A stretch of 64,000 bases of DNA from contig QZLH01000041.1 of the NCBI GenBank assembly GCA_003833135.1, positions 8,473-72,472 of the forward strand, written 5' to 3'. The notes under the pieces were generated by a model that was given only the letters and a program-made list of their open reading frames with translations, ran no database searches and was not told the origin of the DNA. The position numbers and the translations under genes were made by a program. Origin of the DNA: Oehlia diaphana (taxonomy: Eukaryota; Glomeromycota; Glomeromycetes; Glomerales; Glomeraceae). Of this stretch, positions 1 to 46,680 are shown in pieces. Position 1 is the stretch's first letter. Each line of letters starts with the position of its first letter.

Positions 1-509
1 TAGTAAAAAATATTTTATAATAAAATTATTAGTATTAAATAAATACAATTTTATGAATTCCCGAATGTTGAAGTTTCGGTATAAAAAATGCTATCTGAAA
101 CTTATGCAAATATTTAATCGAACTTTTACCAAAAATCATGTGAATCGTAAATCAAAAATTAATCAAAAATCATGTGAATCATAATCGAAAATTAACCGAA
201 ATTTGAACGAGTGGCAGTCTGAGTTGTACAACTCAGTATAAACATTCGGTATAAACATTTGGCCAATTTTGGCCAGATTTTGGACATAATTTGGCCCAAA
301 TTTACCTATCCGAAATTCGACTAAATTGGACTATTTTAACTAGTGCCTTTCCCTCCCTTCGTTTTCCTTTCCCTTCCTTTCCTTTTCCCTTCCTTACCCT
401 TTCCCCTTTCCTTTTGTCACTTATCTCTTTTGAAGGTATATATATACCTTCAAATTTTTACTTTTTTAACAAAATATTTCACTAATATTTTTGTTTTTTT
501 CTTTTTTAG
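1..509. other. Intergenic flank with palindrome and pyrimidine tract
   Basis: No gene is visible. The stretch holds short direct repeats (aatcatgtgaatcgtaa-like, around 136-180), a perfect 18-bp palindrome at 219-236 (CTGAGTTGTACAACTCAG) and a C/T-only run at about 347-415. Two short overlapping open frames over the pyrimidine run are compositional artefacts. Confidence 0.6.
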
Positions 510-2410
510 CTTCAAGACGTCCATTTAAAAGGCTCAGGTGGGCTTCCAAAGAATGGAAAAACCAAGTTTCGTAAGTTAGTACAAAACTTGGTTTATTTTT
601 TTTTATTTTTTTAATTTAATATGAACGATTACTAACCGTTCTTTTTTTACTTTTTTTTTTAGATTTGGCCATTCAGGTGGGCTTTTAAAGTATAGAAATC
701 CCAAAGATTTGTAAGTACGAATTCTTTAGAGTTATTTTTATATTTTTAATATGAACGGTTATTAACCGTTCTTTTTTTTACTTTTTTAGATTTGGCTGTT
801 CAGATGGGCTTCTGAAGAATGGAAAAACTAAGACGAAACTTGGTTTATTTATTTTTTTTTTAATTTAATATGAACGGTTACTAACCATTCTTTTTTTACT
901 TTTTTTTTAGATTCAGCCATTCGGGTAGACTTTCAAAGTATAGAAATCCTAAAGATTCGTAAGTACGAATTCTTTAGAATTTTTTTTATATTTTTAATAT
1001 AAATGGTTACTAACTGTTCTTTTTTTACTTTTTTTTTAGATTCAGCCATTCGGGTGGGCTTTCAAAGAATGGAAAACCCAAGTTTCATAAATACGAAACT
1101 TGGTTTATTTATTTATTTTTTTTTAATTTAATATGAATGGTTACTAACTGTTCTTTTTTTACTTTTTTTTAGATTTAGCCGTTCAGATGGGCTTTCAAAG
1201 AATAGAAAAACTAAGTTTCGTAAATACGAAACTTGGTTTATTTATTTATTTTTTTTTAATTTAATATGAACGGTTACTAACTGTTCTTTTTTTACTTTTT
1301 TTTAGATTTGGCTATTCGGGTGGACTTCTAAAGAATGGAAAAATCAAGTTTCGTAAATACGAAACTTGGTTTATTTATTTATTTTTTTTTAATTTAATAT
1401 GAACGGTTACTAACTGTTCTTTTTTTACTTTTTTTTTAGATTCGGCCGTTCGGGTGGGCTTCTGAAGAATGAAAAAACTAAGTTTCGTAAATATGAAACT
1501 TGGTTTATTTATTTATTTTTTTTTAATTTAATATGAACAGTTACTAACCATTTTTTTACTTTTTGTTAGATTCGGCCATTCAGGTGGGCTTCCAAAGTAT
1601 AGAAACTCTAAAGATTCGTAAGTATGAATTCTTTAAAGTTTTTTTTATATTTTTAATATGAACGGTTATTAACTGTTCTTTTTTTACTTTTTTTATAGGT
1701 TTGGCCATCTGGATGTCTTCTGAAGAATGGAAAAATCAAGTTTTGTAAGTACGAAACTTGGTTTATTTATTTATTTATTTATCTTTTTTAATATTATGAA
1801 TGGCTATTAACTGTTCTTTTTTTACTTTTTTTATAGGTTCGGCCATTCAGATATCTTCTGAAAAATAGAAAAACCAAGTTTCGTAAGTATGAAACTTGGT
1901 TTATTTATTTATTTTTTTATCTTTTTTAACTATTCTTTTCTTTTTTTTTTACAGGTTCGGGTGGACTTCAGACAAACGGAGGAACCAAGATGCGTACTAA
2001 CTAAGATTTGTAGTATGAATCTTAGTTTTTGGAATTTTTTTTATTATTTTGAAATGGTTTACTAACCATTCTTTTCTTATTTTTATAGGTTCAGGTGGAT
2101 TTTCGTCTTTCAAAGGAATGAAAAAAACTAAAGACTTGTATAAATCTTTGTTTTTTTTATTTTTATTTGATATTAATAACAGTTACTAATAACTGTTCTT
2201 TTTTATTTTAGGTTCAGACGGACTTCTGAATTCTGAAGAACAGTAAACCAAGATTCGTAAGTATTCTGAATCTTGGTTTTTTTTCTTATTTTTTTTTAAT
2301 TTATTATTATGAACGGTTACTAACCGTTCTTATTCTTTTTTTATAGGTTCAGGTGGGCTTCTAAAGAATGAAAAAAAACTAAGATTTATAAGTATTACGA
2401 ATCTTAGTAG
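510..2410 (+). repeat. Tandem array of exon-intron-like units (~130 bp, about 15 copies)
   Basis: Each unit reads, on the + strand: a T-rich tract ending in AG; a conserved 45-48 nt block (core GGCCATTCGGGTGGGCTTC); a GTAAGT or GTAAAT donor; about 45 nt of T-rich spacer; a branch-point-like TACTAAC; then about 25-30 nt of pyrimidines and AG. Blocks after AG start at 510, 663, 790, 911, 1040, 1173, 1306, 1440, 1570, 1699, 1837, 1955, 2089, 2212 and 2347. The donor sits in the loop of an inverted repeat (AAGTTTC..GAAACTT) and the branch point inside another (GAACGGTT-act-AACCGTTC). Block lengths of 45, 46, 47 and 48 nt do not keep one reading frame, and the donor is deleted in the unit at 790 and changed to AT in the unit at 1040, so a long repeat protein is unlikely as the sequence stands. 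It could be a noncoding multi-exon transcript, a decayed gene or a satellite. The repeat structure is certain; splicing is inferred. Confidence 0.85.
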
Positions 2411-2700
2411 TTCTTTTTTTTTAAAAAAAAGTAACATTATTATACTGTATTAACGTTTCTATTTCTTTATTTTGTAGGAACTCTGGGACTTTCTTCTCTT
2501 CTTTCCACTCACCCTTCCCTCTTCTCTTTCGTTTTTCTCTGCCATTCCTCTATTTCTTACTTTTGTAGGACGGTTCCTTGGAATTTTCTTCAACTTCAGT
2601 AAGTTTCTTTTGTAGAATCGGTAAGTTTTATTTTTTATTATTAATTTTAGTTTTTTTTAATTAATTTTTTTTTATCTTTTTTTGTAGTTTCAGTTTCCTT
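2411..2700 (+). other. Possible downstream exons of the splice-like array
   Basis: The splice-like pattern continues with unrelated sequence: AG acceptors at about 2476, 2568, 2613 and 2686, and donors GTAAGTTT at about 2599 and GTAAGTTTTA near 2620. These would define very short exons. No convincing reading frame runs through them. This is the likely 3' part of the same transcription unit, if one exists. Confidence 0.3.
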
Positions 2701-3284: not shown

Positions 3285-3505
3285 CATCTGAAATTTGACG
3301 CTACTATTAGACCTATATTCAACCTAGTCAAATTTAGGTCAAATGGTAGTGTAATGATGGCCAAATTTTTTTCTGAATTTAAGACGATTGGCACCTTAAA
3401 TATGCCTAAAAATTTGACCTCAATTTGACACAGATTAGATCATTATTCGACCTATATTCAACCTAGTCAAATTTAAGTCGAATTGTCCTATTTCGACTAG
3501 TGATA
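3285..3505. repeat. Direct-repeat block, possible MITE remnant
   Basis: Two ~31-bp near-identical copies (core ctatattcaacctagtcaaa) lie at about 3310-3340 and 3448-3478, with several TTTGACCT/AGGTCAAA-type motifs in both orientations between them. The symmetry suggests a miniature element, but no target duplication was seen. Confidence 0.4.
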
Positions 3506-5073
3506 GTACTAATCAAATGGATGGATCTGAATTTATATATAAAAATAGCAGATGACGAATAATTTGTATCTTTATCCAGATTCAATCTGAATAGTTTTGA
3601 ATCAGATAAATCTGCAAATTGGCAGATTGACGAATCAACAGATCACAATATTATCAATGGCAAGATATATCATATATTATAATATTGACCTTGAATATTA
3701 TTTTATATATAAAATATACAGATATTAAATAGGATAATATGATCAAATATTTTAGATAATCTTATAATCTTAAAAAAGACAATTTGTTTAAAGATATATC
3801 TTTATTTATTTCATTAAATATCTATTTTGTATTTTTCCAATTATTCTGATAATATAGTATGATATAAATAAAGTTTTTAGCATTATTAAAAAAGTAAAGA
3901 AAATTCACTTATATTTAAAATTAGAAGATTTATTTTTAATTAATAACCTTCTAAATACAATACCATTTTTTTTAAAAAAAAATAAATAATTTTATAAGTT
4001 ATTGTGTATTATAAATTAATTTATAGTTTTACATTTATGAGGAAAAAGAAAAATGGTAAAGATTAGAGAATAAGAAAAATAAATTCTGAATAAAAAAAAA
4101 GAAACTAAAAAAAATTGGGTTTCAAATTCCAAGACTTTTTAGAAGATAAATATATTCACAAACTAATTCATATACAGTAAATACCAATCTTAAAAGAATA
4201 GATAAAGCTGAACTATACACCAAATCCTTCTGCTTTTTGCACCAGATAATGTTGCAAACTGATGCTTAAAAAAGTTAAAAGAAAATTATAAAAGAGTGTC
4301 TTTATAGTTTATTGAAAATGCAAAAAATATACCAGAAATAGGATCTCTCCATAAACAGTTATTCAAATTAGTATTATATGAAATTCTTCATCAAAAAGGA
4401 GTCTTTCTAATATGTAAATTCATGGATAATAGTAAATTAGGATCTAAAACAACTATTTAGAATTTCTGGAAAAATTTTCTTTGATAACATTAGCAATTCT
4501 ATTTTAAACATTTTAAAAAATTTTTATTAATACAATGCAACATGTAAAAATGAATATAAGAGTTGGGACTTTGCCTGTGATATATAGCATCTATGTATTT
4601 GATGGACTATTATATACAATCATTTCTTAAATAATTTTTTTCATTCTAATTCTTTTATTATTGGGAGACCTGCTGTCTCAATAATTCAAGCTCTGATAAC
4701 ATGATCTATAAAACTATATACTGTACATAATAAAATAAAAAATCACATGTTATAGGGAATTGTATAACTTATTAAGTATATTACAAGTTCCTTAAAGTTC
4801 AAAAAAATAAATAAATAATATTTTATTTAAAATTAGATTATTCTAAAATTTTATAATATTAGATTTTTAAATCTTAGAAAATAGCAGATAGATTTAATCC
4901 TTTTATTATTAAACCATGTAATTCTTGCTATAATATGTATGACTTCTATATATAAATGTACTTTGATGTTAGAATATCTATATGAAATATATATTATAAA
5001 TATTATCTTTGGCCATCAAGTCAAACAATGTATGGTAAAAAAGCCTTCTATGATTTAATACTACTCCCCCCCC
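3506..5073. other. Intergenic, AT-rich
   Basis: No supported gene. Around 3550-3650 there are several CAGATT/AATCTG motifs in both orientations. The rest is AT-rich with stop codons in all frames. The 3' flank of the F-box gene contains a C-run at 5065-5073. Confidence 0.5.
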
Positions 5074-16224: not shown

Positions 16225-17130
16225 AAGCGCCATACTGATCAAAAGTCTGGGATTAAACCGGGTGAAAATGGATTAATCCATATTCCACCCCAGATTTCCC
16301 ATATTTTATCCCGGATCTTCTAATATTCTGATCCACCAATAACATCACGTCCAATTATCAAACAGCATCTCGTGTAAACAGAAATTCTTTATTTTAAAGT
16401 CAGAGAAGTTTCTAAATATAAACAAAAAAATCTGATCACATGACTTAAAAACATCGTGATATAATCAACCCAAGGATAAATGTAAGATAAAATCAAATCC
16501 AGGATGAAATACAGATCAAAGCTGGGATTATGAGCCGCCATACTGATCAAAAGTCTGACTAGATCAAACCCTGGATTCATCTGGGATGAAAAATAGATAA
16601 ATCCATATTTATCCCGGATCTGATCCACATTTTATCCCAGATTAATTCCTTAAATTTCACCAAAAATTACATCACACCTAATTATCAAACCCTAGATTAA
16701 ATCCATATTTTTATCCCGAATTTAATCTATATTTTATCCCAGATTATATTTTATTCTTAGACTATAACACAGAAGTTTCTAAGTCATTTAATCAGAATTT
16801 TTTTGTTTATAAGATCATTTTAGAAACTTTTCTTTATAACTTTAAAATAAAAAAAAAATCCTATTGAAGTTTACATGATCATTAATTGATTTCGTAATGT
16901 TGGATTTATATCACCAGGATAAAATCAAATATAGATAAAATCAAATCCGGGATAAAATATAGATTAAATCCAAGATAAAATATGGATTAATCTAGGATAA
17001 AAGATGTATTAATCCAGGGTTTGATAATGTAATTTTTGGTGAATTAATCCGGGATAAAATATGGATCAGATTCAGGAGATCAGATCCAGGATAAAATATG
17101 GGAAGATCCGGGATAAAATATGGATCGACC
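16225..17130. repeat. Foldback element built of GGGATAAA motifs
   Basis: The left half repeats TTTATCCC/ATCCATATTTTATCCC in one orientation (about 16260-16750). The right half repeats GGGATAAAATATGGAT in the opposite orientation (about 16915-17125). The segment CATACTGATCAAAAGTCTG occurs twice in the left half (about 16231 and 16540), so the left arm itself was partly duplicated. The whole region can fold back. No protein is encoded; the short open frame at 16389-16628 (-) is made of the repeats. Confidence 0.75.
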
Positions 17131-46149: not shown

Positions 46150-46680
46150 TTATGTATTCTCTCGCTCTTTTCTTGCTTTCCCTCTTCCTTTCCCTTTCCC
46201 ACATTCCCTCGTTCTTTCCTCTTTCCCCTCTCCCTCTTTCTCTTTCCCTTCCCTTTTCTTTCCTTTCCCTTTCCTTTCTTTCATCGCTTTCTCCTTTTCC
46301 TTTCCCTTATTCTTCCCTTTCCTCTTTCTCTTTATTTCTTCCTTTTCTCCTTCCCTTATTCACTCGTTCTTTCCTCTTTCCTTTCCTTTCCCTTCTTCCC
46401 CTATTCCTTGCTCTTCCCCTTTCCCTTCTCTCGCTTTCCCTCTTTCCCTTCCCTTTCCTCTCCCTCATTCTCTCTTTCTTTCCCTTTCCCTCTTTCCCTT
46501 ATTCAAATATTTTAGATCGTAAGTAATTTATTATATTTAAATAACATTTACATATACAGTAATTTAAATTAACTAAATTCTTTATTTAAAAATTCCCTTT
46601 CCGCCTTCCCTTCCTTTTCCCTTATTCTTCCCTTTCCTCTTTCTTGCTTCTTCTTCCCTTTCCCTCCCTTTCTCTCTTCC
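46150..46680 (+). repeat. Long pyrimidine (CCCTTT)n-type tract
   Basis: From 46150 to about 46505 the + strand is nearly all C/T in CCCTTTCC-like steps, and a second block lies at 46590-46680. Three long overlapping open frames in three different frames arise from the lack of A/G and are not genes. A similar, shorter tract is at 347-415. Confidence 0.85.

What the first reader, a model, noticed from the sequence alone, without database searches (positions are those of the whole stretch)
510..2410. Satellite-like array in which every unit is an exon plus an intron
About 15 units of ~130 bp each contain an acceptor AG after a pyrimidine tract, a 45-48 nt conserved block, a GTAAGT/GTAAAT donor and a TACTAAC-type branch point at the right spacing. 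A transcript could be spliced into a chain of near-identical 47-nt mini-exons. I know of no described family like this. It could be a noncoding RNA, an eroded repeat-protein gene or a splicing-dependent regulatory locus.
Basis: partly seen in the sequence, partly recalled or inferred. Interest (0 to 1): 0.75.

Follow-up and report, generated by a model that had tools for sequence, protein, structure and literature searches.

The report
Jumping genes packed with repeated mini-introns
A root-symbiotic fungus carries dozens of related cut-and-paste transposons built largely of a chain of tiny exon-plus-intron units, most with the splice donor and the branch point in hairpins; no transcript data were at hand to show that these introns are really spliced.

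Summary
In detail: 15 units of ~130 bp at 510-2410, each with acceptor and branch point and a 41-61 nt block; 14 keep a donor (12 GT, 2 AT), one lost it. It is not a lone satellite. Matching units occur at about 53 places in the same ~109 Mb Rhizophagus-like genome (20 read), and where ends could be compared the arrays form the body of terminal-inverted-repeat DNA transposons: family A (this window) with CACTAGT..ACTAGTG ends and 3-bp duplications (EnSpm/CACTA type), family B with CATC..GATG ends and 2-bp duplications (PlavakaB-like), and a third family C. A and B share leader and array although their ends are unrelated. New here: donor and branch point each tend to lie at a hairpin (118 of 168 donors against 13% in shuffles; 130 of 179 branch points against 23%), with different stems in different units and covariation in the donor stem. 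Exon lengths are not multiples of three and no frame holds across copies, so noncoding is favoured. Existing copies decay at CpG without clear selection on donors; the youngest copy read has GT at all 12 donors. Splicing is inferred, not shown; function is unknown.

The parts
300..345 (+). probable end of another, adjacent CACTA-like element (AACTAGTG at 338-345); it stops where homology to other array elements begins, so the 5' end of this copy is cut off or interrupted
   Evidence: short matches (19-22 bp, 82-90%, E 5e-4 to 6e-3) to family A ends; homology of the array element to other copies starts at window 346-348
346..435 (+). CT-rich block (promoter-like) and first exon, cut at its 5' side
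   Evidence: shared with L033-L037
429..454 (+). donor hairpin of the first intron (GTATAT at 436-441 inside TTTGAAGGTATATATATACCTTCAAA)
   Evidence: fold z = -5.0, 0 of 300 shuffles as low; coordinates
468..495 (+). branch-point hairpin of the first intron (ACTAAT 481-486); acceptor AG 508-509
   Evidence: fold z = -3.4, 5 of 300 shuffles as low
510..2403 (+). array of 15 exon+intron units; exon starts 510, 663, 790 (no donor), 911, 1040, 1173, 1306, 1440, 1570, 1699, 1837, 1955, 2089, 2212, 2347
1208..1239 (+). example donor hairpin AAACTAAGTTTCGT(AAAT)ACGAAACTTGGTTT spanning exon end and intron start
   Evidence: general tests
1268..1286 (+). example branch-point hairpin GAACGGTTACTAACTGTTC
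   Evidence: general test
2478..2687 (+). tail with further acceptor- and donor-like sites (donors 2599, 2621; acceptor 2686-2687)
   Evidence: ~79-80% alignments through window 2733 to L033, L035, L037
2688..3502 (+). tail and subterminal region, ending in the 3' terminal inverted repeat TCCTATTTCGACTAGTG (3486-3502)
   Evidence: from window 2931 on 92-94% identical to L033, L035, L037 over 214-577 bp; terminus

Best explanation
Cargo-carrying, non-autonomous TIR DNA transposons (EnSpm/CACTA-type A, PlavakaB-like B, and a third family C) that share one transcription unit: CT-rich promoter, first exon, roughly 7-18 tandem mini-exon/mini-intron units and a tail. They are moved in trans by Plavaka/EnSpm transposases encoded elsewhere. 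Array length changes by gain and loss of whole units. In a young copy the transcript could be spliced unit by unit into a noncoding chain of ~25-65 nt mini-exons. Each donor and each branch point is held in a local hairpin; my best guess is that these hairpins make every intron a locally defined, slow or conditional splicing unit, so that many near-identical sites are paired with their neighbours and not skipped. After insertion copies are probably methylated and decay at CpG, donors included. Shown: transposon ends, splice-signal grammar, hairpins. Inferred: transposition in trans, transcription, methylation, splicing, noncoding product, purpose of the hairpins.
For: Dispersal: 127 matches at 31 places by my count (40 of 122 candidates scored) and 22 further places (40 of 138 scored); 20 of these 53 were read. 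Sharp element ends and TIRs. Target duplications: 2 bp in 6 of 7 family B elements with both ends read (AT, CT, TT, GA, AT, TC; C1163 TA/CA fails), 3 bp in 2 of 2 family A (TAT; TAA if the end base is read as changed). Published PlavakaB (CATCA..TGATG, 2-3 bp) and EnSpm (CAC..GTG, 3 bp) features are close (PMC12730594, passages). An end 77% identical over 173 bp to family B lies ~2.3 kb from a Plavaka transposase match on C530. Hairpins: best stem centred within 5 nt of the donor in 118/168 against 13% of shuffles, branch 130/179 against 23%; stem scores above the shuffled 99% in 61/168 and 53/179. Stem score 10.75 at 106 array donors against 4.4 at 142 GTAAGT/GTAAAT sites elsewhere in the window (72/106 above the background 99%); branch 7.6 (149) against 4.0 (329 TAYTAA sites). 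Donor stem: 85.9% of cells paired against 72.4% shuffled, 49 two-sided changes against 19.5, 0/500 each. First introns, which differ in sequence between A, B and C, have donor hairpins in 4 of 4 copies folded (z -3.4 to -5.0). In L041 12 of 12 donors and 11 of 12 branch points, listed by hand, fold as strong hairpins with at least five different donor stems.
Against: No transcript evidence at all. Decayed donors went CG to CA (GT lost) 24 times and to TG (GT kept) 34 times, not different from 1:1 (p 0.24); against other CpG sites of the unit the ratio TG:CA is higher than at the exon start (p 0.0006), lower than at the other stem arm (p 0.04) and like both branch arms, so there is no clear selection on donors in existing copies. 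In the donor stem the number of pairs with a two-sided change is not significant (7 against 5.3, 46/500), and two inherited stem classes supply much of the covariation. Within the main branch-hairpin type there is no covariation beyond shuffles. Of four first-intron branch hairpins, one (L044) is not significant and one (L043) weak; one L041 branch point has lost an arm and keeps 4 pairs (z -2.3). Hairpins that bury GU and the branch point should hinder splicing. No autonomous element carrying an array was found. Palindromes also occur upstream of the array in family C without splice sites clear to the eye.
Confidence: 0.58

Rival explanations
1. Palindrome array inside a transposon that works at the DNA level (transposase or other protein binding, as subterminal repeats of CACTA elements do), or is kept palindromic by template-switch repair; the splice-like signals are incidental or unused.
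For: Palindromes also lie upstream of the array in family C and at the start of the shared leader in A and B; no clear selection on donors; mutual correction of arms would mimic covariation (inference).
Against: Donor, branch point, T-tract and AG occur in constant order and spacing (the parser used these signals, so this is not independent), and in first introns that differ in sequence; sharp exon/intron base composition.
Confidence: 0.22
2. Eroded multi-mini-exon protein gene (repeat protein of ~15 aa per exon) carried by the transposon.
For: Spliced exons of the youngest copy L041 (12 exons) have stops by frame [8,0,5] (exon-order permutation p 0.03; TAA/TAG only p 0.28); the window copy with unit 3 skipped has [11,15,3], the 3 all TGA, TAA/TAG [9,12,0] (p 0.004); L042 TAA/TAG p 0.05.
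Against: Exon lengths mod 3 are 0/1/2 in 44/39/58 of 141; homologous exons would be read in all three frames, and in different frames in L041 and the window. With unit 3 included the answer depends on its original length, which is inferred: at 47 nt, as in its neighbours, no frame is open (TAA/TAG 11/3/8); with 43 or 45 letters one frame keeps 1 or 0. L033, L037, L050 and C1458 are not open. 19 chains were tested, several of them incomplete, so the best p is weak after correction.
Confidence: 0.1
3. Small-RNA unit: tandem spliced-leader-like or intron-hosted small RNA genes (in spliced-leader RNAs, recalled, the donor is also paired with the leader exon).
For: Donor paired with the upstream exon; short units in tandem; second hairpin downstream.
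Against: Each unit has its own branch point and acceptor, not expected of a leader gene; no Rfam match in the window. An Sm-type site was not searched for by a tool.
Confidence: 0.05
4. Plain local satellite, as an ordinary tandem repeat.
For: Head-to-tail array with ~130-bp period.
Against: Leader, array and tail recur at many loci with sharp TIR ends and target-site duplications.
Confidence: 0.02

Closest known systems
PlavakaB DNA transposons (CMCT clade; PMC12730594, passages)
   Same: Family B ends CATC..GATG and 2-bp duplications; end similar to one near a Plavaka transposase match
   Different: Fifth base at the 5' end is G, not A, in 6 of 7; no transposase seen in array copies; interior is an exon-intron array; the window's own element (A) has other ends
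EnSpm/CACTA DNA transposons (PMC12730594, passages)
   Same: Family A ends CACTAGT..ACTAGTG and 3-bp duplications
   Different: No transposase match on the window's contig; array cargo shared with family B
Pack-type (gene-capturing) CACTA elements (recalled)
   Same: A transcription unit carried between TIRs
   Different: Parent gene not sought; the same cargo in two unrelated end types; cargo is an array of variable length
Introner-like elements and stwintrons of fungi (PMC9024468, passages; introners from search-listing abstracts and recall)
   Same: Repeated introns with strong hairpins; in the stwintron model internal donor and branch elements also mask each other
   Different: There the mobile unit is the intron, placed in host genes; here it is a TIR element in which exon plus intron repeat together
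SP7-like effector genes of Rhizophagus (PMC11333574, passages)
   Same: Glomeromycotina-specific tandem-repeat genes
   Different: One conserved intron before the first repeat and protein-coding repeats
Tandem snoRNA host genes (recalled)
   Same: Noncoding tandem exon-intron units
   Different: No Rfam family match in the window; mobile by TIRs

Membership tests
PlavakaB (family B) | termini CATCA..TGATG | tested here: inconclusive
   of 7 elements with both ends read, 4 keep CATC and GATG (C4, C12, C398, C23), 3 have changed bases there (C85, C661, C1163); 5' fifth base is A in 1 and G in 6; 3' TGATG exact in 5 of 7; published termini. Close but not exact
PlavakaB (family B) | 2-3 bp target-site duplication | tested here: met
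   2 bp in 6 of 7 elements with both ends
PlavakaB (family B) | Plavaka transposase in the element | tested here: inconclusive
   none of 24 PF18759 matches lies in an array copy read here; a B-like end on C530 lies ~2.3 kb from one; the other end was not read
EnSpm/CACTA (family A, window) | termini CAC..GTG | tested here: met
   L035 at both ends; L037 with C>T and G>A; L034 5' end; L036 5' end CAT; window 3' end. Window 5' end missing
EnSpm/CACTA (family A, window) | 3-bp target-site duplication | tested here: met
   TAT (L035), TAA (L037, end base taken as changed), 2 of 2 with both ends; window copy not testable
EnSpm/CACTA (family A, window) | DDE transposase | tested here: not met
   no PF02992 match on C41 among 28; so non-autonomous at best, not a full member by coding content
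Introner-like element | mobile unit is a single intron inserted in host exons | tested here: not met
   boundaries of the mobile unit are TIRs outside the array
Stwintron | an intron nested in a splice element of another | tested here: not met
   units lie head to tail, not nested
SP7-like effector | single conserved intron before coding repeats, secreted protein | tested here: not met
   intron in every unit; published structure; signal peptide not tested
Known structured RNA | Rfam match | tested here: not met
   0 matches at gathering threshold in the window
Pack-type gene capture | identifiable parent gene outside transposons | not tested
   33 of the ~53 places were not read

The most novel reading that the evidence does not exclude
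A noncoding, multiply spliced 'mini-exon chain' RNA gene has been taken up by at least two and probably three unrelated transposon families because it helps them: its dozens of hairpin-guarded donors and branch points act on the spliceosome (as a decoy, a licensing signal or a splicing-dependent protection against silencing), a class of transposon cargo that I found in none of my ten literature searches.
Probability: 0.2. Interest if true: 0.88.

Novelty: new variant of a known kind. Interest (0 to 1): 0.62.

Why it matters
If the arrays are spliced, this would be a natural library of hundreds of related introns with donor and branch point in hairpins, at all stages of decay, in one genome: a direct system for asking how local RNA structure sets splice-site choice among near-identical sites, and why different transposons carry the same intron-dense cargo. 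It may also account for some of the unclassified repeats of Rhizophagus (two thirds of its transposable elements remained unclassified, PMC11075540, abstract); whether these elements are among them was not checked.

Tried and rejected
Coding: in-silico splicing in three frames with exon-order permutations; no frame conserved across copies; two copies with long open chains remain as an oddity. SP7 effector family: passages read, gene structure does not fit. Autonomous element with array: a 3217-aa open frame next to the array on C1458 proved to be a run of N; a transposase fragment ~550 bp downstream of the tail there may belong to a neighbour. RNAalifold on the donor alignment gave no pairs, probably because loop lengths vary; I then counted a stem that I named. 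A first pair count of the branch hairpin was out of register (42.6% paired, no support) and was redone on one loop type (91% paired, no covariation beyond shuffles). The hand-picked fold windows are centred on the hairpins and so flatter the z-scores; I also left one L041 branch point out of that list and folded it afterwards (4 pairs, z -2.3). Searches are the fair tests. Rows dropped before counts: L040 (99.96% identical to L041) and L039 (3 units) from the unit set; 11 of 179 units without a recognised donor. For one search, 133 distinct donor windows were reduced to 69 drawn at random (at most four per copy), of which I chose 38 that looked alignable, which favours the main stem type. The A-B leader match (70% over 181 bp) is partly CT-rich sequence searched without a low-complexity filter. 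Literature: ten searches listed no report of such arrays; four papers were opened, passages or outline only; most subscription papers are not held.

Full report
What was checked. The window begins at base 8473 of contig C41 of a 108.8-Mb, 1672-contig assembly. Reading 510-2410 and searching it with tandem-repeat, repeat and profile tools gives 15 head-to-tail units. Unit 3 lost its donor; two other donors read AT instead of GT.

It is a transposon. A single unit finds 127 matches, at 31 places by my count, and a unit-rich stretch of a third family adds 22 places. In these searches only 40 of 122 and 40 of 138 candidates were scored, so about 53 is a lower bound on matching places; but only 20 of them were read (window, L033-L050, L071), and some of the others rest on a single short match. 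Comparing the first 19 with their flanks, homology stops sharply where ends are present. Profile hits per array are 7-18, except 3 in L039. Family A (window, L033-L037) ends in CACTAGTC..GACTAGTG with 3-bp target duplications in the two copies where both ends are present; family B (L038, L042-L044, L046-L050) ends in CATCRGGAAATTTTTT..AAAAAATTTCCYGATG with 2-bp duplications in 6 of 7 copies with both ends (three of the seven lie outside L033-L050 and were read only at or near their ends). These are close to the ends reported for EnSpm and PlavakaB elements (PMC12730594, passages); PlavakaB is given as CATCA, while six of seven copies here have G in the fifth place. End patterns with up to 3 mismatches occur 49 times (B 5'), 68 times (B 3', partly the same places), 4 times (A 5') and 10 times (A 3'). 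The genome holds 24 Plavaka and 28 Transposase_21 matches at E <= 0.001. One B-like end (77% over 173 bp) lies about 2.3 kb from a Plavaka match, which makes a Plavaka transposase the likely mover of B. Copies at C1163 and C398 sit inside other array copies, to judge by their flanks. Family C (L041, L045, C1458) has its own leader, tail and, by eye, subterminal repeats; its ends were not settled.

The window copy. Its 3' end is at 3502. Its 5' end is missing: homology to the other copies starts at 346-348, directly after an ACTAGTG-type end at 338-345 with short matches to family A ends, as if another CACTA-like element lay against the CT-rich block.

One cassette, several carriers. Families A and B share the array and a leader: a palindrome of the form AGTTTAAAAAAGGATCATCCTTTTTTAAACT in A, with an insert in B, followed by a CT-rich block (70% over 181 bp). 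Their terminal and subterminal parts gave no such match. The CT-rich blocks of C match only weakly, as CT-rich sequence would.

Splice grammar. In 179 units from 18 copies (L040 dropped as a duplicate of L041, L039 dropped) the order acceptor, exon, donor, T-rich tract, branch point, T-tract, acceptor is constant: median exon 46, intron 85, branch A to AG 26 nt. The units were parsed with these signals, so their presence in parsed units is not an independent test; the base composition (exon T 27%, intron T 51%) and the first introns, which follow the same rules in differing sequence, are better evidence.

Hairpins. The donor lies at the top of, or directly beside, a long hairpin that usually pairs the exon end with the intron start, and the branch point lies in the loop of a second hairpin. 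Best stems centre within 5 nt of the donor in 118 of 168 units against 13% in shuffles, and within 4 nt of the branch point in 130 of 179 against 23%. 142 GTAAGT/GTAAAT sites elsewhere in the window have a median stem score of 4.4, 106 array donors 10.75; 329 TAYTAA sites 4.0, 149 array branch points 7.6. On 38 selected donor stems 85.9% of cells pair against 72.4% shuffled, with 49 two-sided changes against 19.5, while the number of pairs with such a change (7 against 5.3) is not significant. The branch hairpin does not covary within its main type, but different stems occur at other branch points of the youngest copy, where 11 of 12 are strong and one has lost an arm. Of four first-intron branch points folded, two are clear, one weak and one not significant. 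Template-switch correction of palindromes could produce much of this without selection; I cannot exclude it.

Coding or not. Exon lengths are 0, 1, 2 modulo 3 in 44, 39 and 58 of 141. In-silico spliced chains are open in L041 ([8,0,5] stops by frame) and nearly so in the window ([11,15,3], unit 3 skipped) but not in L033, L037, L050 or C1458; with unit 3 included the window's frame depends on the length assumed for it and closes at the 47 nt of its neighbours. I favour noncoding.

Age and selection. CpG content of the arrays runs from 0.48 to 2.24 of expectation over 18 copies. L041 on C679 is the youngest by this measure; GT stands at 8 of 8 parsed donors and at all 12 that I listed by hand. 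Decayed donors went CG to TG 34 times and to CA 24 times; compared with four other CpG sites of the unit the ratio lies between them. So present copies show no clear selection for splicing; the signals look as if set in active ancestors.

What is not known. No RNA data could be searched. Whether the unit is transcribed, spliced, useful to the transposon or to the fungus is open. A curated study of R. irregularis transposable elements (PMC11075540; passages; outline and abstract) names Plavaka and CMC families and has no occurrence of 'intron', 'splic' or 'tandem' in its main text.

Noticed in passing
window 300-345: An ACTAGTG-type CACTA end abuts the truncated 5' side of the array element, suggesting that one element inserted into or next to the leader of the other.
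   Followed up: partly
L040 1-2562 and L041 4522-7083 (array orientation; contigs C821, C679): Two contigs carry the youngest array copy, 99.96% identical over 2562 bp: recent duplication or haplotype redundancy of the assembly.
   Followed up: no
L071 (C1458:9400-12400): A family C array is followed about 550 bp beyond its tail by a Transposase_21 fragment; the 3217-aa open frame reported there is a run of N.
   Followed up: partly
L041 (array orientation 4522-4800), L045 3680-4350: Upstream of the first array exon family C has alternating palindromes (AATCGGAACGTTGGCTAACGTTCCGATT and AACGAAACGTTTTTTACGTTTCGT types) without splice sites clear to the eye.
   Followed up: no
window and L041 spliced exon chains: Two copies have an unexpectedly open spliced chain (permutation p 0.004 and 0.03 among 19 chains) although frames are not conserved; unexplained.
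   Followed up: yes
window 46150-46500: About 350 bp of CT-rich sequence like the leaders of the array elements; the unit profile finds no array there.
   Followed up: partly
window 16696-17123: Palindromic ~22-bp repeats (AATCCAGGATAAAATATGGATT type) in several copies, perhaps subterminal repeats of another element.
   Followed up: no
C101:67841-85005: A pair of inverted family-B-like ends 17 kb apart, possibly a large or nested element.
   Followed up: no
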